The position numbers and the translations under genes are program-made. Positions 26,997-37,288 of a stretch of 64,000 nt of DNA are shown piece after piece; positions within the stretch are counted from its first letter, which is position 1; every line of letters begins with the position of its first letter. The notes beneath the pieces are model-generated. The model did not search any database. It was not told the DNA's origin and saw only the letters and a list, made by a program, of their open reading frames with translations. The stretch is from Brevirhabdus pacifica (GTDB lineage: Bacteria; Pseudomonadota; Alphaproteobacteria; Rhodobacterales; Rhodobacteraceae): contig NZ_PGFI01000011.1 in the NCBI RefSeq assembly GCF_002797755.1, forward strand, positions 496,001-560,000. The letters run 5' to 3'.

Positions 26997-27260
26997 CTAT
27001 CTGATCTTCGATAGGAGCGCGCGTCTGTTCTGGAATTTATTTGAGGCGGTTCCGGCAACATCCATATGGAACACGGCGAAGAGGTCGGCCACGATCAGAT
27101 CTTTTCCTTCGTCAGTCCTACCCCAATTTCAAGAGTGAAGCGCTGGGACGCGACGCTGCCGTAGCTTGCGAACTGAAACATCATTCCCTTCGATAAATGC
27201 TTCAAATCGATGCCATTGTGTGCTTGCATCGGTTTCGAACAGGGTGGCAACGGCCATTGA
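26997..27260 (-). pseudogene. Possible interrupted coding remnant
   Basis: Minus-strand frame reading ATLFETDASTQWHRFEAFIE ... RQRRVPALHS, then one in-frame TGA at 27129-27131, then DEGKDLIVADLFAVFHMDVA and a stop at 26997-26999. The two halves share one frame, as expected of a gene with a nonsense mutation. No family is recognised and no start is clear. Confidence 0.22.
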
Positions 27261-27295
27261 AAGATTGTCGGAAGAGTTGAAATGTGTTCTGAAAA

Positions 27296-28807
27296 ATGAA
27301 AGATGATAAATTCGATAGAAATGGAGAAATGCGCGGAAAAAGACAGGCCGATGCGACACCTCATGCGGCGTCGCTGATCGAAGGTATGAGGGATTTCGGG
27401 TATACGCTGGAGACAGCGATGGCCGACATAATCGATAATTCTATCACTGCAGGTGCGTCGAAGGTGGAGATTCTGGCTGAGACCACAGGCGACGCCCCTT
27501 GGATTGCCGTGGTGGATGACGGTTCCGGCATGGATGAGGCAGAACTTATCGAGGCGATGCGCCCGGGGTCCCGAAATCCGCTGGAAGAGCGCGAAGGTCA
27601 CGACCTTGGGCGATTTGGTCTGGGCTTGAAGAGCGCCAGTTTCTCACAGTGCCGTCAGCTGTCAGTTATCTCCAGGAAGGTCGGCCTGACGTCGGCGGCA
27701 ACGTGGGATCTCGACAGGGTGGCAGAGACGAACGTCTGGGCCGTCGAGCTTGAAGATGACCTGTCGAGCATTCCTGCAGCGGACCACTTGCCGGAGACCG
27801 GTACAATTGTCCTGTGGCGCAAGCTCGATCGGCTTTCTGCTGGTTACCGGCACGACGCTACAAAGCGGGCTGCAGAGATCAACAAGGCTCTTACCGGAGC
27901 AGAAAGGCATCTCAGACTCTGCTTCCACCGATACATGGAAGGCACCCGTCCCGAAGTCCGACTTTTCCTGAATGGCCGGAGATTGTTGCCGGTCGATCCC
28001 TTTGCGCAGGATCACAAGGCTACGCAGGTGGATCCGGTCGAGGTCCTGCCATTAACCACGGGAACCGTGGAGACCCAGTGCTTCACCCTTCCACACCACA
28101 AGATGATGTCGCGCTCCGCATGGGACGACCTCGGCGGGCCAGAAGGGCATCTTCGATCTCAGGGATTCTACATCTACCGCGAAAGGCGCCTGATCATTGC
28201 CGGAAGCTGGCTCGGTTTGGCGCGCCAGACTGAATTGACCAAGCTCTCGCGTGTGCGAGTGGACATTCCAAATACCATGGACGCCGATTGGAAAATCGAC
28301 GTCCGGAAGGCGAATGCGCAGATGCCACCGATCGTCCGGGAGCGGCTGCGGAAGATTGTCGAACGCCTTCAGGGGACCTCCAAGCGCACCTACAAGCGGC
28401 GAGGACAGAAGCTCGTCGACGACAGGAAGCTGCCATTCTGGAATCGCGTACTGCAGGATGGGAAGATCATCTACAGACCAAATGTTGACCACCCGTCAAT
28501 CAGTGGATTCGAGGAGAGCCTTCCTGAGGAATTCCGGAACGGGTTTCGCACCTGCCTGAAACTGATTGGCTCCGGCCTTCCCATTGAGTCGTTGCACGCC
28601 GACATGCTGGGCGGGGCCGAGGATGTATTTGCGGAAGAGGCGGATTTCGTTTCGCTGTCGGAGGGCGCGGAAACCGCAATCCGGGCGCTTCGGGGGATGG
28701 GCATGGCAGTTTCTGACATTGTTGCGAACCTATGCACGAACGAGCCGCTGCGCAGCCACAAGGACGAGGTGCGCAGATTGGCGGAAGCCATTGAACAGGG
28801 GGAATAA
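27296..28807 (+). CDS. MORC/MutL-like GHKL ATPase of Mza-type defence system
   Basis: 503 aa. The GHKL ATPase motifs are intact: ETAMADIIDNSI (N-box, E39 and N48), VVDDGSGM (74-79) and DLGRFGLGLKSAS (103-115). The next 200 residues fit an S5-like transducer domain, and the C-terminal part is unassigned. Prokaryotic MORC and paraMORC proteins were linked by gene context to restriction systems with superfamily II helicases and nucleases, and a MutL-like ATPase is part of the Mza antiphage system. It would reorganise DNA-protein complexes on ATP binding. First of four co-directional genes; the stop is 2 nt before the Z1 start. The start at ATG 27296 has no good ribosome-binding site, so a nearby ATG could be used. 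Lower GC than the flanks. Confidence 0.9.
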   Translation: MKDDKFDRNGEMRGKRQADATPHAASLIEGMRDFGYTLETAMADIIDNSITAGASKVEILAETTGDAPWIAVVDDGSGMDEAELIEAMRPGSRNPLEEREGHDLGRFGLGLKSASFSQCRQLSVISRKVGLTSAATWDLDRVAETNVWAVELEDDLSSIPAADHLPETGTIVLWRKLDRLSAGYRHDATKRAAEINKALTGAERHLRLCFHRYMEGTRPEVRLFLNGRRLLPVDPFAQDHKATQVDPVEVLPLTTGTVETQCFTLPHHKMMSRSAWDDLGGPEGHLRSQGFYIYRERRLIIAGSWLGLARQTELTKLSRVRVDIPNTMDADWKIDVRKANAQMPPIVRERLRKIVERLQGTSKRTYKRRGQKLVDDRKLPFWNRVLQDGKIIYRPNVDHPSISGFEESLPEEFRNGFRTCLKLIGSGLPIESLHADMLGGAEDVFAEEADFVSLSEGAETAIRALRGMGMAVSDIVANLCTNEPLRSHKDEVRRLAEAIEQGE

Positions 28808-28809
28808 AA

Positions 28810-31557
28810 TTGAACGCCCAAATCGAACACCTTGACGGTATCGTGTCGCAATCTCTCGCGAATGAGCGGAGGACGGGAGATGAGCTGAGGATGCTCATCA
28901 CGACGTTGAACGGGGCGCTCAAGCTCGGGGTTGGTTCGGTCGATCAGGAGCAGCTTGCACGCGACATCGAGGAGAGGTTCGGCATCAGCATGGGCCTCGG
29001 GGCGATGGTTGATGATGAGGACTTCCGACCTTGGCTGCCGGAGGCCAAGGCATCGATCGAACCGTTCTATTGGGGGCGATACCGGAAGCTCATGCTGAAG
29101 AACGGCCTTCCCCAAGACGTCGTTACAGCTACTGATACCGTCACCGACGAGATCCTCGGGCGATTGGGAAACCCGAACCTCCAAGAGGAATGGGATCGCC
29201 GGGGCATGGTAGTTGGGCACGTCCAAAGCGGAAAAACCGGCAATTACACCGGTCTCATCTGCAAGGCGGCGGATGCCGGATACCGTCTGATCGTGGTTAT
29301 CGCGGGCATTCACAACAACCTGCGCAACCAGACCCAGGAACGGATTGACGAGGGCTTCATCGGCCGAGATACGGGCAGGCTCGCCATGAAAGGCCGGAAG
29401 GTGGGCAACAAGGCGATCGGCGTTGGACTTTTCGATGATCGGCGGACACCAGTCAGTCTGACCAATACGCTCACCGATTTCCGAAAGAATACCGCCACCA
29501 GCAATACAAGCGAGATCGACTCCTACAAGGTTCCGGTCGTCCTAGTCATCAAGAAGAACCATTCGACCCTCAAGAATCTGCTCGACTGGCTGCGTGAGAA
29601 TAGCGCCAAAGGAGATGCCCAGATGATCAGCCAGCCGATGCTGCTGATCGATGACGAGGCAGATAATGCCTCCATCAATACCAAATATTCGAAGGAGGAG
29701 ATCACCAGGATTAACGGACAAATCCGCGACCTGCTGGGGATGTTCCACCGCAGCTGCTACGTCGGATACACGGCCACTCCCTTCGCAAACATCTTCGTGG
29801 ACCCGGACTCTTATGATGAAGCAAAGAAAGAGGACCTCTTCCCAAGGCATTTCATCGTAGGCCTCGATGCGCCGACCAACTATTTTGGGCCGAAGAAGAT
29901 ATTCGTGGATGGGCTGCCAGAGGAAGGTGAACCCACCTGGCTGCGCTACATTTCGGACAATGAAGACATCCTTCCGATCAAGCACAAGATTGATCAGAGC
30001 TTCGACGAGCTTCCTGACAGTCTTCTCACGGCCCTGCGCACATTCCTAATTGCACGAACGATACGGAATTTGCGTGGCCAAGCCCGTTCACATTGCTCGA
30101 TGCTGGTAAATGCCAGCCGCTTCACCGATATGCAGGGAAAGATCCGCAACCGTATTCATGAGCGTCTGGACGTGATGCTGGACTCGCTTCGCGTCAACGG
30201 CGCTCGTGGTGCGGATGGGTTGAGCGATCCCGAGATTTCTGCACTTCGGCAGGTATGGGCAGAAGAATATTCGGACCTCGAGTTCGATTGGCATCAAATT
30301 CAGGGCGCCATGCTCGAAGCTGTCGCCGCAGCCAAGGTCGTCGAGGTGAATAGCCGGGCTAACGGCCTCGATTATTCGAACGATGGCAGCATCGGGCAGA
30401 CACTCATCGCGGTCGGCGGCTTCTCGTTATCCCGAGGACTGACGCTTGAGGGGCTCACCGTGACATGGTTTCTGCGCAATACCATGATGTACGACACCCT
30501 TATGCAGATGGGGCGCTGGTTCGGCTACCGAGGCGGCTACGAGGATGTCTGCCGCATCTGGATGCCCGTCGATGCGATCGACTGGTACACACACATCGCC
30601 GAAGCCACCGACGAGCTCCATCAGGAGCTGAAGAAAATGCAGAAAGCCAAGGCCACACCGGCCGACTTCGGCCTCGCCGTGCGGAGCCACCCAACCTCGC
30701 TGATGGTCACTGCGCGGAACAAGATGGGGTCGGGCCAGAAGCACGTCATGATCGGCCTTTCCAACGCATGGGTCGAGACGGCGAAGATCAGCGCGCGTGT
30801 CGATGATCTGACCAGAAACGAGGAAGCGGCGGTCCGTTTCCTCGAGGCGGTCGAGGAGGCTGGGCATCGGCAGGAGAAGGCCGAGAAAGTCCCTGGAGGC
30901 TATCTGTTACGTGGTGTCGATGTGGAAAACATCGATAACTTCCTTCTTGCATGGAGGAGCCATGATCAGGCGTTTCTCACCCAGACCGGACCCATCCGGA
31001 GCTACATTCGTGATCGCAGGCGGGACGAACTCAAGAACTGGGATGTGCTCGTCACCAGTGTGAACAGCGAGGGTCCCGAGGCGGAAATTGCCAACTGGAC
31101 CGTTGGGCCGCAATTGCGCCGGATCGGTTATGCAGACCTCGCCGATGATCTTCTGTCGATCAGTGGCAAGAGGGCGCGCATCGCTTCGCGTGGTGTCGAG
31201 AGGATCGGAGTGGATCCGGAGAAAGCGTCAGAGGCGGAAGCGCTCTACAGAAGTGTCGAGAGGATTGCCGTAGATACTCGTATCTCCTATCCGGACCGCA
31301 TCTACCGGGCAGTTCGGGACAGGCCGCTCTTCGTGCTTCATGTGGTCCGGGTGCGTCCTCCGGAAGGCGAGGACGCGAATCGGCCACATCTTGATCGGAT
31401 CCCCGATCAGCCGATCATCGGCTGGTCCATCAGTTTCCCTCAGTCGGCTCGTCCGAATCAGCGGGTGGAATACGTGATCAACACGGTCAAGTTCCGCGAG
31501 CTGTATGGCGCCGAAGATGAGGAGCCGGACGATGGAGCGCTCGAAGATGACGCCTGA
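28810..31557 (+). CDS. Z1-domain helicase-like ATPase of Mza-type defence system (TTG start)
   Basis: 915 aa. Walker A GHVQSGKTGNYTG (136-148), Walker B-like LLIDDEADNAS (DDEAD 281-285), motif GYTATPFANIFVDP (319 on) and QMGRWFGYRGGYEDVCRIW near 570 are the marks of the Z1 (PF10593) superfamily II-type domain found with MORC ATPases. The start is TTG 28810, right after GGGGAATAAAA and 2 nt beyond the ATPase stop. It probably acts with the ATPase and the PD-(D/E)XK protein as a DNA-translocating or remodelling complex against foreign DNA. The 3' end overlaps the next gene. Confidence 0.92.
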   Translation: MNAQIEHLDGIVSQSLANERRTGDELRMLITTLNGALKLGVGSVDQEQLARDIEERFGISMGLGAMVDDEDFRPWLPEAKASIEPFYWGRYRKLMLKNGLPQDVVTATDTVTDEILGRLGNPNLQEEWDRRGMVVGHVQSGKTGNYTGLICKAADAGYRLIVVIAGIHNNLRNQTQERIDEGFIGRDTGRLAMKGRKVGNKAIGVGLFDDRRTPVSLTNTLTDFRKNTATSNTSEIDSYKVPVVLVIKKNHSTLKNLLDWLRENSAKGDAQMISQPMLLIDDEADNASINTKYSKEEITRINGQIRDLLGMFHRSCYVGYTATPFANIFVDPDSYDEAKKEDLFPRHFIVGLDAPTNYFGPKKIFVDGLPEEGEPTWLRYISDNEDILPIKHKIDQSFDELPDSLLTALRTFLIARTIRNLRGQARSHCSMLVNASRFTDMQGKIRNRIHERLDVMLDSLRVNGARGADGLSDPEISALRQVWAEEYSDLEFDWHQIQGAMLEAVAAAKVVEVNSRANGLDYSNDGSIGQTLIAVGGFSLSRGLTLEGLTVTWFLRNTMMYDTLMQMGRWFGYRGGYEDVCRIWMPVDAIDWYTHIAEATDELHQELKKMQKAKATPADFGLAVRSHPTSLMVTARNKMGSGQKHVMIGLSNAWVETAKISARVDDLTRNEEAAVRFLEAVEEAGHRQEKAEKVPGGYLLRGVDVENIDNFLLAWRSHDQAFLTQTGPIRSYIRDRRRDELKNWDVLVTSVNSEGPEAEIANWTVGPQLRRIGYADLADDLLSISGKRARIASRGVERIGVDPEKASEAEALYRSVERIAVDTRISYPDRIYRAVRDRPLFVLHVVRVRPPEGEDANRPHLDRIPDQPIIGWSISFPQSARPNQRVEYVINTVKFRELYGAEDEEPDDGALEDDA

Positions 31558-32506
31558 AAGCCCATGGGAGCCTATCGAGCCTGGAGTCGCTCACCGCGTC
31601 GACAAGAACGGACGGCACGACTTCTTCTGGAGCAGGATGCCCGACCGGTCCCCGGCACTTGTTCTGCGCCTGGACAACGTCATAAAGCCTATTCAACCTC
31701 TCCCCAAGTTGCGCCACGTCGGGGCTTTCTACCGGGTCGTCGAGGGGCGGAACTGCTATTGCCTCACGCTGAATGAGCGCAGTCATCTGGATCTGTTCGA
31801 GACACTTTGCCGAGATGTCGTGGGGGCAGCCGAGGCGGCCGAGGATTTGCAATCTGCGCTGCAACGGGCCGTGCGCCGTACGATGCGTTGGCACCATTTG
31901 CTTCGTGGTGGTGGGCTAGGGTTGAGCATCGAGGAACAACGCGGCTTGGTCGGAGAGCTGACCCTACTGCGGGAACTTGTTGCCGAGATCGGTCCGATGG
32001 CCGCTGCAGAGGCCTGGCGCGGACCCGAGGAGAGCGCCAAGGACTTCGAACTGCCGGGCCTCTACATAGAGTGCAAGGCACGGAGAAGCGCCGCGCATCC
32101 TAAAGTCCGGATATCGTCAGAAGCACAGCTGATGGACATACCCGGCGCCAGACTATTTCTGCGCGTCCAGGATGTGGACACGGCGCTTGATGGCGACGGT
32201 GGAAACCTGGTCCAGCACGTCGAGCGGACTGGCACGTTGTTCGAAAATGACTTCGTTGCGTATGATGTTTGGGAACAGCGCCTCATTGGAACCGGCTACG
32301 ATCCGGAATTGGTGGAGGAAAACAGGACCTGGCATCTCGGAGCCGTGCGGATGTTCGAGGTGCGCGACGGGTTTCCTCGAATTGTGCCGCCTCTACCAGC
32401 GGGCGTCGAAGCCGTCGAGTACGGCATTCGCCTGTCCGATTGCGCCGACTTTCAGGCCAGCGGCAATCTAAAGCAGCTATTTTTCGAGAGTAAGTGCAAT
32501 GTCTGA
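31532..32506 (+). CDS. PD-(D/E)XK nuclease-like protein (DUF4420 type) of Mza system
   Basis: 324 aa. The predicted nuclease core has E142 in GLVGELTLLREL, D171 in AKDFELPGLYIECKARR, and E180-x-K182 in IECK, the full PD-(D/E)XK set, so it is probably an active endonuclease. The fold fits DUF4420 (PF14390), the DUF component of Mza. ATG 31532 is chosen because GAGGAG lies seven bases upstream; ATG 31505 and 31547 are in frame too. It overlaps the Z1 gene by 26 nt and the AIPR gene by 8 nt, so the four proteins are likely made together. Confidence 0.88.
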   Translation: MERSKMTPESPWEPIEPGVAHRVDKNGRHDFFWSRMPDRSPALVLRLDNVIKPIQPLPKLRHVGAFYRVVEGRNCYCLTLNERSHLDLFETLCRDVVGAAEAAEDLQSALQRAVRRTMRWHHLLRGGGLGLSIEEQRGLVGELTLLRELVAEIGPMAAAEAWRGPEESAKDFELPGLYIECKARRSAAHPKVRISSEAQLMDIPGARLFLRVQDVDTALDGDGGNLVQHVERTGTLFENDFVAYDVWEQRLIGTGYDPELVEENRTWHLGAVRMFEVRDGFPRIVPPLPAGVEAVEYGIRLSDCADFQASGNLKQLFFESKCNV

Positions 32507-34604
32507 TCTGGAAGAATTCCATCACAGCCTGATCGCCGATATTCAGGGTGATGCCGATGCGTTAGGCCTCTACACGCAGGAAGCCTTCTTCGAGAAGATC
32601 GGCGAAATCCTGACCGAGGCCGGTGAGATCGATCAATCTGACTATTGCCACTTCGAAGGACAGCGGCAGTCTGTCCGGGAGGGCAAGAGGCGTCGATTGT
32701 CTCTTGCTGTTTCGGGACATGGCGGCGATCCGGCCGACGCCGGAGACGTGCTTTCGCTAATCCTGTGCGACTTTCAGGTAAACGCCGAAGTACGCAGGAC
32801 CGATGGAAAATTTCTGAAAGCCCAGTTCAATCGGCTTGTGGAATTCCTGCGCCATGCCAGGACTTCCGATTTTTCGGACGAACTCGAGGAGACGAGCCAC
32901 GCGGCCCAGTTGTCGGACCTGATTCAAACCCGCTGGAAGAGCATCGAAAAGATCAAGCTGATCTATGTCACGAACTCGGACAACCGCGCCGTCGTCGATG
33001 CGCGCCCCGCAGGCAGTATCGGCGAAAAGCCGGTTACCTACAGCGTCTGGGATCTGAAACGCCTACAGGCCTTCGTCGAGCAGGGGAGGGCGAGAGCAGA
33101 CATGACCGTGCGATTTGCCGAGGACTTCGGCGGTGGAGTTCCGGTCCTGAAGGCATCGGGTTCCGACACCGCTTTCGAAAGCTACATTGCTGTCATACCA
33201 GGGGCGCAACTGGCGGAGATCTACGATCGCTGGGGCGCGCGGCTTCTCGAATCGAACGTGCGATCCTTTCTCCAGGCGCGGGGCAATGTGAACAAGGGGA
33301 TCCGGAAGACCATCATGGAAGAGCCCCAGATGTTCCTAGCCTACAATAACGGTCTCGCTGCCACGGCTGAAGGGGTGGAACTCGAGCAGACCGCGGACGG
33401 CCTGCTGATGGTGACTGCCGAAAACCTCCAGATCGTCAACGGCGGGCAGACCACTGCATCACTTCACGCCGCAAGGAAGAAGGCTGGCGACGGAATGAAG
33501 GACATCTATGTCCAGATGAAGCTAAACGTCATTCCGACCATCTCCGCGGATTCCGTGGTGCCGAGGATATCTGAATTTGCCAACAGTCAGAACAAGGTCG
33601 CCGCAGCCGACTTCTTTGCCAACCATCCCTTTCATATCCGGATTGAGGAGCTTTCCCGAAAGATCCTCGCGCCCGCCGGGGAGGCTGGCTATCGCGAGAC
33701 CAAGTGGTTCTACGAACGGGCGCGTGGGCAGTATGCGGACGAACGGAGCCGCAAGACTGATGCCGAGAAGAAGAAATGGGATGCGGAGTTCCCGAAGAAC
33801 CAGTTCTTCACCAAGACAGATCTGGCCAAGTTCGAGAATTCATGGTCAGGGCGTCCGGAATGGGTGTCGAAAGGCGCCCAGAAGAACTTTGCCGAATTCG
33901 CGAAAACGATCGAGAGGGTCTGGGGACGCAGTGGAGCGAAGATCAATGAGGTCTGGTACCGCAACTTAGTCACAAAGGCGATCATCTTCCGGCGCTTGGA
34001 GAAGCTCGTGTCGGCTCAGGAGTGGTATGAGGGCGGATACCGGGCCAACATTGTCACATATGCCATCGCGAAGGTCGCCCACGATGCTCGGGAGATGGAG
34101 AAGGTCATTGATCTCTCCCGGATCTGGCGGGCACAGGCGGTGCCGAGCTCCTTGGAGGAGGCGTTGCTTGTAGCAGCTGCGGAAGCCCAGGACATCATAA
34201 CCAATCCGCCGGATGGCGTCCGCAACATGTCCGAGTGGGCGAAGACGCAGGCCTGCTGGAAAGCTTTCTCTGAACGAAAGCTCTGCTATGACAACGCATT
34301 TCAGCAGGTTCTCGTGGACGAGGATGATGCGAAGTCCGAGGAGGACGAGGTCACGGACGACGAAAACCTGACAAAGAGTGTCGAAGCCCAGACGCGCGTC
34401 TTCGAACTGGGGGCGGCATTCTGGGCCGAAGCCAAGATGTGGGGCCGGAGTCATCGGCTGCTTTCACCGGCCGAATATAACACCCTCGAAATCTGTGCGA
34501 AGATACCTACTCGCCTGCCGACTGAGCGGCAGACCGAATTTGCTTTGGAGATCCTTGCAAGACTTGAGGCCGAGGGCTTCGGGGCTGCTGAGGTAGCCGA
34601 GTAG
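32499..34604 (+). CDS. AIPR family abortive-infection protein of Mza system
   Basis: 701 aa. The AIPR (PF10592) core is clear: LLESNVRSFLQARGNVNKGI, QMFLAYNNGLAATAEGVELE, and LQIVNGGQTTASLHAARKK, followed by a segment on residues needed for FANSQNKVAAADFF. AIPR proteins are found in phage-exclusion and restriction loci; the biochemical activity is not settled. A Glu/Asp-rich stretch (about 607-625, EDDAKSEEDEVTDDE) lies near the C-terminus. Last gene of the four-gene unit, it ends 1 nt before the stop of the convergent methyltransferase gene, leaving no room for a terminator. Confidence 0.92.
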   Translation: MSDLEEFHHSLIADIQGDADALGLYTQEAFFEKIGEILTEAGEIDQSDYCHFEGQRQSVREGKRRRLSLAVSGHGGDPADAGDVLSLILCDFQVNAEVRRTDGKFLKAQFNRLVEFLRHARTSDFSDELEETSHAAQLSDLIQTRWKSIEKIKLIYVTNSDNRAVVDARPAGSIGEKPVTYSVWDLKRLQAFVEQGRARADMTVRFAEDFGGGVPVLKASGSDTAFESYIAVIPGAQLAEIYDRWGARLLESNVRSFLQARGNVNKGIRKTIMEEPQMFLAYNNGLAATAEGVELEQTADGLLMVTAENLQIVNGGQTTASLHAARKKAGDGMKDIYVQMKLNVIPTISADSVVPRISEFANSQNKVAAADFFANHPFHIRIEELSRKILAPAGEAGYRETKWFYERARGQYADERSRKTDAEKKKWDAEFPKNQFFTKTDLAKFENSWSGRPEWVSKGAQKNFAEFAKTIERVWGRSGAKINEVWYRNLVTKAIIFRRLEKLVSAQEWYEGGYRANIVTYAIAKVAHDAREMEKVIDLSRIWRAQAVPSSLEEALLVAAAEAQDIITNPPDGVRNMSEWAKTQACWKAFSERKLCYDNAFQQVLVDEDDAKSEEDEVTDDENLTKSVEAQTRVFELGAAFWAEAKMWGRSHRLLSPAEYNTLEICAKIPTRLPTERQTEFALEILARLEAEGFGAAEVAE

Positions 34605-34605
34605 T

Positions 34606-36099
34606 TCAGTCTATCAGGCGTCGCACTGCCTTCGCGATCTGGAAGGCCAGATACGGCGGCACGGCGTTGCCGACCTGATGATACTGCTGCGTGCGCGGAC
34701 CGCAGAAGAAGTAGTCGTCAGGGAATGTCTGAAGCCGGGCGGCCTCGCGAACGGTAAGAGAACGGCATTGCGCCGGATCGGGATGGATAAAGTAGTGACC
34801 ATCCTTCGAGATGTGGCTCGTAACGGTCGTGGACGGTCTGGTCGCGACCTGCGTTCGGAAACGGTCGGCAAAGTCTCCTGAAGCGCGGTTGCGATGCCGG
34901 GGTTGCAGAAAGTCGGGGAATTCCGAGAGCTTCGGCGCACGGTCGTGAACCCGGGCGTAGGCAGCGGAGAACAGGTAACGACCGAGATCGTCGGGGATGT
35001 GGCCACGGGTTTCGTGCTGAAGAGCGGCTGAGAGGCGATCGTCTCTGATCCAGTCCTTGAGGTGATCAGGTAGGCGATCCGCGTCGAGAACCCTTCGTGA
35101 TAGGCGCTTGCTCGGCAATGCTTCGTCGCGAGCCAGATGCAGGGCGATATCTCGGACCCCGGGGTCAATACTTCCATGACTCGCGATCGCCTCCGCTTGT
35201 GCCTTGACCGTACTCTGCCACGCGCTCGTTTCGTCTTGCCTGCTGAGCCCGCTTCGCAGCTTCCAGAGGTCTTCGATCACCTCGGCCACGGTAACAGGGT
35301 CTGCGGGGTCACCCAGCAGGGGAGAATTGACGTCAGGAACCGCCATGTCCTTGCGAATGCCGAGGACTATTACCCGGTGCCGTGCTTGAGGGACCCCGTG
35401 TTGTTCGGCCCTGATCAGGAAGTCTCTGCCGTCCGCACGTTGCCCGTCTGCAGGCGGAACGGCGGCCAATGGCAGCAGTCGGTAGCCGGTGCCGCCAGCG
35501 CCCTCCAGATCGTCGAGAACCCGACTGAATATCCCTCCACCATCCACCCTTGAGGAGAGCATGCCCTTCACATTCTCCATAACGAAGGCGGCCGGACGAA
35601 GCCTATCAAGGATGCGCACGTATTCGCGATAGAGGTAGTGCCGGTCATCCTCCTCAGCCACATACCCCGTTTTCCCCTTATTCCGGGATCGACCAGCCAG
35701 CGAGTATGCCTGACAGGGGGGGCCGCCGATCAGGATCGTATCTCCGTGGTTCGCCTCGCGCGCCTTGTCCAGTTCGACCGCGATCTCCTCGAACACGCCG
35801 TGTGCACCAAGAACTCTGCGGCGCACTTCGCCCTGCGCCAGCTTCCAGTTCGACGGATAGAGCTCGGACCACGAGGGCAGCACCGTTCCTGTATTCAGCG
35901 CCTCGTAGTACTCCGGCGGGAAGCTGTCGAAGCTGCGTAGAAACGATCGCAGCCTAAGCGTCTGCACTGCATAATCATCCATCTCCACGGACAGATGGAT
36001 ATCCATGGGTGTTGCCGGGTTTCGGCCGGCTCGGGAAAATCCTTCGCCAAGCCCTCCAGGGCCGGCGAACAGATCGATGATGGCGAAGTTTCTTGGCAA
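34606..36099 (-). CDS. DNA (cytosine-5) methyltransferase (TTG start)
   Basis: 497 aa. C5 methyltransferase motifs in order: DLFAGPGGLGEGF (I, 9-21), GGPPCQAYS with catalytic C129 (IV), FVMENVKGML (VI), QARHRVIVLGIR (VIII), SLTVREAARLQTFPDDYFF (IX), YHQVGNAVPPYLAF (X). The target-recognition region between VIII and IX is long (about 200 residues), so the recognition site cannot be read. The start is TTG 36099 with GGAGG six bases upstream; an ATG 36 codons earlier would overlap the vsr start and lacks family residues. Divergent from vsr and convergent with the AIPR gene. It probably marks host DNA for the adjacent Mza-type system. Confidence 0.95.
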   Translation of the reverse strand: MPRNFAIIDLFAGPGGLGEGFSRAGRNPATPMDIHLSVEMDDYAVQTLRLRSFLRSFDSFPPEYYEALNTGTVLPSWSELYPSNWKLAQGEVRRRVLGAHGVFEEIAVELDKAREANHGDTILIGGPPCQAYSLAGRSRNKGKTGYVAEEDDRHYLYREYVRILDRLRPAAFVMENVKGMLSSRVDGGGIFSRVLDDLEGAGGTGYRLLPLAAVPPADGQRADGRDFLIRAEQHGVPQARHRVIVLGIRKDMAVPDVNSPLLGDPADPVTVAEVIEDLWKLRSGLSRQDETSAWQSTVKAQAEAIASHGSIDPGVRDIALHLARDEALPSKRLSRRVLDADRLPDHLKDWIRDDRLSAALQHETRGHIPDDLGRYLFSAAYARVHDRAPKLSEFPDFLQPRHRNRASGDFADRFRTQVATRPSTTVTSHISKDGHYFIHPDPAQCRSLTVREAARLQTFPDDYFFCGPRTQQYHQVGNAVPPYLAFQIAKAVRRLID

Positions 36100-36186
36100 A
36101 GGACACCTCCGGGATATGTGTCTTCTACCAGGTCTGCGTAATCCCGCCAGGTCGAAAATGCATCCGAGAATGACTACATTCAGTCC

Positions 36187-36729
36187 ATGGCCGATATTGT
36201 CGATCACAAGACGCGTTCGCGAATGATGTCAGGGATCCGCGGGTCCAACACCAAGCCGGAGATTCTTCTTCGGAAGGCGCTTCATGCAGAGGGATTTCGG
36301 TTCCGCATAAATGTAAGGCGCCTTCCCGGAACACCAGATATCGTCTTGCCGAAATGGAATACGGCCATTCTGGTCCATGGCTGCTTCTGGCACAGGCATC
36401 CTGATTGCTCAAAGGCAACCACGCCCTCGTCGAATACCTTGTTCTGGCAAAACAAGTTCGCCGCCAACGTCGAGCGAGACGGACGGGCGCTCCTGAAGCT
36501 CGATGAGCGTGGCTGGCGAACCTTGACGATCTGGGAGTGCGCGATCGGAAGAGTGGTTCAACGCAACTTGATAGAGGAGATCGCCGCATTTTTATATGCT
36601 CGGGATCCAGCGGGGTCATGCAATGATAAATCGGTCCTGCACGGTGAAATAATCAGTCGGGACACGGCGCCGGGTTCATTTTATGTGGGGAGTAATGGCC
36701 TTGCCGATATTCCGCGTCGATCACCCTGA
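36187..36729 (+). CDS. vsr: Very short patch repair endonuclease (Vsr family)
   Basis: 180 aa, about 35-40 residues longer than typical Vsr because of an unassigned tail after residue 140. It nicks next to T:G mismatches made by deamination of 5-methylcytosine. All key residues are present: E25 in TKPEILLRKAL, D51 in GTPDIVL, H64, C66, H69, H71 and C74 in HGCFWHRHPDC, and the zinc Cys in WECAI. It lies head to head with the C5 methyltransferase gene (87 nt between starts), the normal pairing. Weak ribosome-binding site. Lower GC than core genes. Confidence 0.95.
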   Translation: MADIVDHKTRSRMMSGIRGSNTKPEILLRKALHAEGFRFRINVRRLPGTPDIVLPKWNTAILVHGCFWHRHPDCSKATTPSSNTLFWQNKFAANVERDGRALLKLDERGWRTLTIWECAIGRVVQRNLIEEIAAFLYARDPAGSCNDKSVLHGEIISRDTAPGSFYVGSNGLADIPRRSP

Positions 36730-37214
36730 CTTGCCAGCATTTGCAGGTCGTGAATTGCCCGAGTGAAATGGCAGGGACCCTGCCAAGGCATTCCCTTCCC
36801 TTTGAGAGTGTCGCTCGGCCGCGGTTTTCCCAATTCGACGAAGCATTTCCCGAAGCGGGAGCGCGTAGCGCTCGCGGGGCTTGAGTCGGCCGTGCACGAG
36901 GATGGCAATCCGCTTGCGCTCGGCCCAAAGGTTCGGCAGAAGATCAGGGCCATTTAAGCGCAGCAAAAGCGCACCAGTCTCAAGCCGCTGTCTTGACTTC
37001 GGTACGGCGTGCGCTGCGCCGCCCGCTCGATACACTAACCGTATATTTCCCTTCAATTTTGGTGGCTGTAGGCGCCCGAAGGGGTGCGCCGTTCCTACCT
37101 GCCAGAGTCGGGTCGAGCGGCGCAAAACAGAACGGAACAAAATCAGAATGTTTAGACAAATGTTTAGGCGCGCGATTCACCGTTGGTCAAAAATCCGCTA
37201 AGTCATTGAAATGA
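36730..37214. other. Right edge of the defence island, no recognised gene
   Basis: 485 nt between vsr and tRNA-Cys. One minus-strand open frame of 139 codons (36721-37140, beginning MFRSVLRRSTRLWQ) crosses much of it, with LPNLWAERKRIAILVHGRLK inside; it is Arg-rich, overlaps the end of vsr and is not recognised, so it is not called as a gene. ATGTTTAG occurs twice at about 37148-37165. No integrase or transposase was found. Confidence 0.55.
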
Positions 37215-37288
37215 TGGAGGCGAGTACCGGAATCGAACCGGTGTACACGGATTTGCAATCCGCTGCGTAACCACTCCGCCAACTCGCC
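37215..37288 (-). tRNA. tRNA-Cys (GCA)
   Basis: 74 nt cloverleaf on the minus strand. Acceptor stem GGCGAGT / ACTCGCC, D-arm GCGGAGTGGTTACGC, anticodon stem GCGGA / TCCGT with loop TTGCAAA (anticodon GCA), T-arm CCGGTTCGATTCCGG, discriminator T and an encoded CCA. Its 3' end faces the defence island, the usual orientation when a tRNA gene serves as an integration site. Confidence 0.97.

What the first reader, a model, noticed from the sequence alone, without database searches (positions are those of the whole stretch)
27296..34604. Four-gene Mza-type antiphage operon (MORC/MutL ATPase, Z1, DUF4420 nuclease, AIPR)
Seen: four co-directional genes with gaps or overlaps of 2 nt, 26 nt and 8 nt, all with intact catalytic motifs (GHKL N48; Walker A 136-143 and DDEAD 281-285 in Z1; E142/D171/E180-x-K182 in the nuclease; full AIPR core). 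Known: MORC-type ATPases with Z1 helicases and nucleases were predicted as restriction systems by comparative genomics (Iyer, Abhiman and Aravind 2008), and the set MutL, Z1, DUF, AIPR is the Mza system of Gao and colleagues 2020. Inference: this is a complete, potentially functional Mza locus. The mechanism is, to my knowledge, unsolved, so the locus is worth study although the architecture is not new.
Basis: partly seen in the sequence, partly recalled or inferred. Interest (0 to 1): 0.75.

Follow-up and report, generated by a model that had tools for sequence, protein, structure and literature searches.

The report
Six-gene MORC–Z1 restriction-modification locus
The four reported genes are real, but they form a six-gene DNA-defence locus with a neighbouring DNA-marking enzyme and its repair partner, so this is most likely an ATP-driven restriction-modification system of a kind predicted in 2008 and described again as an untested candidate in 2022, not the Mza system in the strict sense.

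Summary
They match PF13589, PF10593, PF14390 and PF10592.

(1) The locus does not stop at 34604. A cytosine-5 DNA methyltransferase (34606-36099, minus strand) and a Vsr endonuclease (36187-36729, plus strand) follow at once; they are the only ones in the genome. In 41 of 41 related loci with enough flank a Dcm-type methyltransferase lies within 5 kb (Vsr in 32). In a second set found through the AIPR gene it is 16 of 16. (2) It is not "complete Mza": mzaA, a sigma factor, is absent. All four proteins score far below NCBI's Mza cut-offs, and the tree places them outside the sigma-bearing Mza group. The locus meets the MORC/Z1/nuclease signatures of Iyer et al. 2008 and matches the untested "type II" candidate of Miller et al. 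2022.

Best reading: an ATP-dependent restriction-modification system in which Dcm marks self, the MORC/Z1/DUF4420/AIPR block destroys unmarked DNA, and Vsr repairs deaminated marks (confidence 0.65). No activity has been shown. New member of a known kind.

The parts
27296..28807 (+). MORC-type GHKL ATPase (MzaB homologue), 503 aa; N48, DDGSG, GRFGLGLK, MORC S5 signature GFYIYRERRLI at residue 290
   Evidence: sequence match to human MORC2 structures, E 7e-5
28810..31557 (+). Z1-domain superfamily 2 helicase/translocase (MzaC homologue), 915 aa, TTG start; Walker A 136-143, DDEAD 281-285, Z1 signature DTLMQMGRWFG at residue 562
31532..32506 (+). DUF4420 nuclease of PD-(D/E)XK type (MzaD homologue), 324 aa; E142, D171, E180-x-K182
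   Evidence: residues invariant in 18 homologues; predicted model pLDDT 88 with helix-strand-strand-strand-helix-strand around the motif
32499..34604 (+). AIPR-family protein with AIPR_N domain (MzaE homologue), 701 aa; about 100 aa longer at the C-terminus than MzaE of the sigma-bearing Mza group
34606..36099 (-). Cytosine-5 DNA methyltransferase (Dcm type), 497 aa from a TTG with GGAGG just upstream (longest open frame runs to 36207); motifs DLFAGPGG, GGPPCQAYS, MENVKGM, QARHRV, GNAVPP intact; convergent with the AIPR gene, 1 base apart
   Evidence: only PF00145 gene in the genome
36187..36729 (+). Very-short-patch-repair endonuclease Vsr, 180 aa, divergent from the methyltransferase
   Evidence: TIGR00632, 125 bits over a cut-off of 98; only Vsr in the genome
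26800..37200 (.). Low-GC island that holds the six genes, between an IclR-type regulator gene and tRNA-Cys; no integrase and no flanking tRNA repeat found
   Evidence: 58.0% GC for 27001-36800 against 68.1% (sd 1.8% in 2-kb windows) for the rest
37215..37288 (-). tRNA-Cys (GCA) at the right edge; the tRNA next to pcm is conserved in relatives while the genes beyond it differ

Best explanation
A six-gene ATP-dependent restriction-modification locus. Inferred mechanism: the Dcm-type enzyme methylates a fixed cytosine-containing site in the host genome. A complex of the MORC ATPase (a DNA clamp or gate), the Z1 superfamily 2 motor, the DUF4420 nuclease and the AIPR protein engages DNA that lacks the mark, moves or loops it at the cost of ATP and cuts it. 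Vsr repairs the T:G mismatches that arise when 5-methylcytosine deaminates, so host sites are kept. Shown here: gene content, intact catalytic motifs, obligatory linkage of Dcm to the block, and co-inheritance of the four-gene block. Inferred: every biochemical step, assembly of the four proteins into one complex, and the site.
For: Dcm within 5 kb in 41 of 41 related loci with at least 4.5 kb on each side (Vsr in 32 of 41), in several different orders and orientations. A second sample found through the AIPR gene in IMG/VR: 16 of 16 loci with all four genes have Dcm, 14 of 16 Vsr (three of these are near-identical to loci of the first sample). All 14 cassette genomes checked have both a cytosine methyltransferase and a Vsr, those with the cassette at a contig end included, against Vsr in 32 of 101 genomes of the order. 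The own genome has exactly one of each, in this island. Identities of the four block proteins correlate at r = 0.97-0.98 with one another, as expected of one machine. A Z1 motor with a separate nuclease and an m5C methyltransferase is biochemically established as ATP-dependent restriction in CglI and NgoAVII (PMC4267653). Iyer et al. 2008 predicted restriction-modification for just this gene set (PMC2292703). All active-site motifs are intact.
Against: No function was measured. The Dcm co-varies only weakly with the block (r = 0.39-0.46) and is replaced in some close relatives by a Dcm of another subfamily (L067, 28% identity, while MzaC is 61% identical). No segment of the block was found that co-varies with the Dcm target-recognition region. 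E. coli mzaA-E, the homologue that is curated as antiphage, has no linked Dcm or Vsr.
Confidence: 0.65

Rival explanations
1. A Mza-like system that does not use methylation: the MORC/Z1/DUF4420/AIPR block senses infection, for instance replicating or unusual DNA, and AIPR or the nuclease stops growth or destroys DNA. The Dcm-Vsr pair is a separate module that often travels along.
For: E. coli and Salmonella-type Mza is curated as antiphage, and E. coli loci have no linked Dcm. Weak co-variation of Dcm with the block. A Dcm-Vsr pair of this subfamily also occurs beside an unrelated SspH-like FtsK ATPase and an HNH nuclease (L225).
Against: 41 of 41 and 16 of 16 linkage is far too strict for an optional companion. 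About 98% of E. coli genomes (5316 of 5426) carry chromosomal dcm-vsr, so E. coli does not show that the block can do without a methyltransferase.
Confidence: 0.22
2. The Dcm mark is regulatory or marks DNA for the complex instead of protecting it, for example methylation of the locus' own control region or modification-dependent restriction.
For: Dcm and Vsr are transcribed divergently from an 87-bp gap in the window, a layout in which a methyltransferase could control expression.
Against: A modification-dependent nuclease beside an active methyltransferase of the same site would be self-destructive. The layout varies between loci, so a shared control region is not conserved.
Confidence: 0.06
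3. A silent or decayed island without present function.
For: Acquired DNA with different base composition. Broken relatives exist: in-frame stop in L112, split AIPR in L117, IS-interrupted mzaB in E. coli 214-4.
Against: All six reading frames are intact with plausible starts and all catalytic residues are kept.
Confidence: 0.07

Closest known systems
MORC / Z1-helicase / novel restriction endonuclease operons with DCM, Vsr and AIPR (Iyer, Abhiman and Aravind 2008, PMC2292703, third operon type)
   Same: All components; MORC S5 signature GhXhhpXXRhl, Z1 signature DThhQXuRhFG and E-D-ExK nuclease motif all present
   Different: Nothing in gene content; that work was a prediction without experiment
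Type II of the putative Z1 + PD-(D/E)XK + cytosine methyltransferase defence system (Miller, Stern and Burstein 2022, PMC9523054)
   Same: Core Z1 + DUF4420-type nuclease + cytosine methyltransferase, plus AIPR and a MORC protein, mzaA mostly absent
   Different: Vsr was associated there mainly with type I; their putative transcriptional regulator was not seen here; their printed identity to Mza (about 20%) is lower than the 28-39% over aligned stretches found here
Mza system, mzaABCDE (Gao et al. 2020; E. coli loci L134 and L137)
   Same: Four homologous genes in the same order, 28-39% identity over the aligned parts
   Different: No mzaA sigma factor; scores below equivalog cut-offs; AIPR about 100 aa longer; linked Dcm and Vsr, which E. 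coli mza lacks
CglI / NgoAVII restriction-modification systems (PMC4267653)
   Same: m5C methyltransferase, separate nuclease and Z1-domain ATPase acting together with extensive ATP hydrolysis
   Different: PLD-type nuclease with a B3 DNA-binding domain instead of DUF4420; no MORC ATPase and no AIPR

Membership tests
Mza (mzaABCDE, strict sense) | mzaA sigma-70 factor next to mzaB | tested here: not met
   No sigma factor in the window's island; MzaA-model hits in the genome lie elsewhere, are all below cut-off (430, 139, 131 bits) and the model also rings in 10 of 14 control genomes, so they look like ordinary sigma factors. The gene is present beside E. coli mzaB and in L081-L090, L105-L107.
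Mza (mzaABCDE, strict sense) | mzaB, C, D, E at the NCBIfam equivalog level | tested here: not met
   328, 551, 88, 362 bits against cut-offs 850, 1500, 420, 1050. Sigma-bearing alphaproteobacterial loci also fall short of the cut-offs but score about twice as high (649, 1181, 277, 697), so the cut-offs are strict.
Mza (mzaABCDE, strict sense) | Homology and order of the B-C-D-E genes | tested here: met
   PADLOC MzaB, MzaC, MzaD and MzaE are the best hits in order
Iyer 2008 third-type MORC restriction-modification operon | MORC protein with GhXhhpXXRhl in the S5 domain | tested here: met
   GFYIYRERRLI at residue 290; 75 of 80 homologues also match
Iyer 2008 third-type MORC restriction-modification operon | Superfamily 2 helicase with DThhQXuRhFG (Z1) | tested here: met
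   DTLMQMGRWFG at residue 562; Pfam Z1 263 bits
Iyer 2008 third-type MORC restriction-modification operon | Restriction-endonuclease-fold protein with E-D-ExK | tested here: met
   E142, D171, E180-x-K182 invariant; alpha-beta-beta-beta-alpha-beta order in the predicted model. No significant match to a solved structure.
Iyer 2008 third-type MORC restriction-modification operon | Linked cytosine methylase, Vsr and AIPR (frequent, not obligatory in the paper) | tested here: met
Miller 2022 type II candidate | Z1 + PD-(D/E)XK protein + cytosine methyltransferase + AIPR, MORC nearby | tested here: met
Restriction-modification system | Methyltransferase and restriction complex act on the same site; methylation protects | not testable with these tools
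   Needs methylome and phage or transformation assays

The most novel reading that the evidence does not exclude
The four-protein block is a restriction engine without a sequence-recognition subunit of its own type: it reads protection written by interchangeable Dcm partners (two or more unrelated Dcm subfamilies are found with closely related blocks), and Mza loci without a linked Dcm, as in E. coli, use the chromosomal Dcm-Vsr pair in trans.
Probability: 0.1. Interest if true: 0.75.

Novelty: new member of a known kind. Interest (0 to 1): 0.4.

Why it matters
It corrects the unit of study. Anyone expressing only the four genes as 'Mza' would leave out the methyltransferase that accompanies them in every fully sampled relative, and might kill the host or see nothing. 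It also separates a sigma-less, Dcm-linked branch from sigma-bearing Mza, and turns the open question of how Mza-type systems tell self from non-self into a direct test: does host Dcm protect? MORC ATPases in eukaryotes silence transposons, and a tractable bacterial MORC restriction machine would bear on how that fold acts on DNA.

Tried and rejected
Search for mzaA in the island: none. Search for a segment of the four proteins that co-varies with the Dcm recognition region: partial correlations at most 0.25, no candidate specificity part. A single fixed recognition site for the whole group was considered because the region is conserved (0.69-0.89) in 40 loci, but about half of the linked Dcm proteins lack the signature of the window's subfamily (42 with, 48 without), so it holds at most within the subfamily. 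Fold search with predicted models: nothing significant for the DUF4420 protein (DpnI only at rank 38, probability 0.28) or for AIPR (MspJI, Cas4 SSO0001 and McrC, all PD-(D/E)XK nucleases, at E 0.6-1.1: a lead only). AIPR against a DUF262 (ParB-like) protein: no relation. No solved relatives by sequence for the Z1, AIPR or DUF4420 proteins. No attachment-site repeat of the tRNA-Cys end and no integrase, so a tRNA-targeted integration is not shown. Promoter and terminator scans at chance level. A Fisher test comparing Dcm in 14 of 14 against 1 of 25 genomes mixes Dcm subfamilies and is not used.

Full report
Observation. Pfam assigns HATPase_c_3, Z1, DUF4420 and AIPR/AIPR_N well above cut-off; PADLOC gives MzaB, MzaC, MzaD and MzaE in order. 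This is far beyond chance.

The locus is larger. One base after the AIPR stop, on the other strand, ends a cytosine-5 DNA methyltransferase (34606-36099; TTG start preceded by GGAGG; motifs DLFAGPGG, PCQ, ENV, QARHR and GNAVPP intact), and divergent from it lies a Vsr endonuclease (36187-36729). They are the only PF00145 and Vsr genes of the 3.4-Mb genome. The six genes share one low-GC island (58.0% against 68.1%, sd 1.8% for 2-kb windows; third-position GC 61-71% against 81-89% for neighbours) between an IclR-type gene and tRNA-Cys. No integrase or tRNA repeat was found. In relatives the tRNA-Cys next to pcm is kept while the genes beyond it differ.

Comparative evidence. Z1 homologues were collected from samples of the order, class and phylum and 20-kb neighbourhoods were read. 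In 41 of 41 loci with at least 4.5 kb on both sides a Dcm-type methyltransferase lies within 5 kb, and Vsr in 32. The pair sits downstream and convergent, or upstream in either orientation, so the linkage is not just one inherited arrangement. A second collection started from AIPR in IMG/VR contigs: of 16 loci with all four genes, 16 have Dcm and 14 Vsr; three are near-copies of loci in the first set. Five gammaproteobacterial loci show the same (L143-L147). Genomes whose cassette runs into a contig end all have a Dcm-Vsr pair elsewhere, in G764, G611 and G394 at a contig end. The background for Vsr in the order is 32 of 101 genomes. Of 25 Vsr-positive genomes without the cassette only one has this Dcm subfamily, and there it stands beside an SspH-like FtsK ATPase and an HNH nuclease.

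Co-evolution. Over 40 loci, pairwise identities of the four proteins correlate at 0.966-0.982 with one another but only 0.39-0.46 with Dcm. The four are one machine; the methyltransferase is always there but is exchanged. L067 has a 61% identical Z1 protein but a Dcm of another subfamily (28%). Within the window's Dcm subfamily the recognition region is well conserved, yet 48 of 90 linked Dcm proteins lack its signature. No part of the four proteins tracks the recognition region, so the specificity subunit, if there is one, was not found.

Mza or not. MzaA is a sigma-70 factor; those sampled carry ankyrin repeats at the N-terminus. It stands beside mzaB in E. coli and in a distinct group of loci (L081-L090, L105-L107). 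The window has none. Its proteins score 328, 551, 88 and 362 bits against NCBIfam cut-offs of 850, 1500, 420 and 1050, and are 28-39% identical to E. coli MzaB-E over the aligned parts. In the MzaC tree the window falls in a starred group of 43 rows, none with sigma; sigma-bearing rows fall on the other side (quick tree with several long branches). AIPR of the window's group is about 100 aa longer. E. coli mza has no linked Dcm or Vsr, but 98% of E. coli genomes have chromosomal dcm-vsr. Whether Mza uses it is untested.

What it matches. Iyer et al. 2008 defined operons with a MORC ATPase bearing GhXhhpXXRhl, a helicase bearing DThhQXuRhFG and a nuclease bearing E-D-ExK, often with DCM, Vsr and AIPR. 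The window has GFYIYRERRLI, DTLMQMGRWFG and E142-D171-E180xK182. Miller et al. 2022 described a candidate system with core Z1, PD-(D/E)XK protein and cytosine methyltransferase, whose type II adds AIPR and MORC and resembles mzaBCDE without mzaA. The window is a member of that set. Both are predictions.

Mechanism. By analogy with CglI/NgoAVII, where a Z1 ATPase and a separate nuclease cut DNA with heavy ATP use beside an m5C methyltransferase, the likeliest working is methylation of self by Dcm and ATP-driven destruction of unmarked DNA by the four-protein block, with Vsr guarding the methylated sites. The role of AIPR is open: its predicted model (pLDDT 85, pTM 0.48) has only insignificant matches, the better-ranked nuclease-like ones to PD-(D/E)XK enzymes. 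Every biochemical step is inference.

Limits. Loci were found by similarity to the window's Z1 or AIPR protein and related loci are not independent. Organism names of the sampled genomes are hidden. The original Mza paper was not available in the library; its gene set is taken from NCBIfam and PGAP annotation and from PMC9523054.

Noticed in passing
L225:5104-13397: A Dcm-Vsr pair of the window's subfamily (52% identity) stands beside a 1710-aa SspH-like FtsK/SpoIIIE ATPase and an HNH nuclease: a different ATP-dependent candidate restriction system using the same modification module.
   Followed up: partly
L106:4496-6811; L089:12382-14631: MzaA-type sigma factors carry N-terminal ankyrin repeats in front of sigma-70 regions 2-4, an unusual architecture for a sigma factor in a defence locus.
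   Followed up: partly
L134:158-18198: E. coli mza sits in a defence island at yecA with a type I R-like protein, M48 peptidase, DUF262 protein and an Mrr-type nuclease, without a linked methyltransferase; 98% of E. coli genomes carry dcm-vsr elsewhere.
   Followed up: partly
L155-L180: Complete or partial copies of the cassette occur on contigs classed as viral in IMG/VR, which suggests carriage on prophage-like or other mobile elements (or misclassified host DNA).
   Followed up: no
L091-L095, L109, L119, L146, L148: Z1 + DUF4420 + Dcm loci with no detectable MORC and AIPR genes, in most with 3.5-3.8 kb between the core genes and Dcm: probably the type I arrangement of Miller et al. 2022.
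   Followed up: no
L112 (Z1 gene, in-frame TGA), L117 (split AIPR), L137 (mzaB interrupted by IS421): Damaged relatives of the system.
   Followed up: no
window 27095-27601 (-): A 168-aa open frame overlapping the start of the MORC gene on the other strand has no Pfam match and is probably not a gene.
   Followed up: partly
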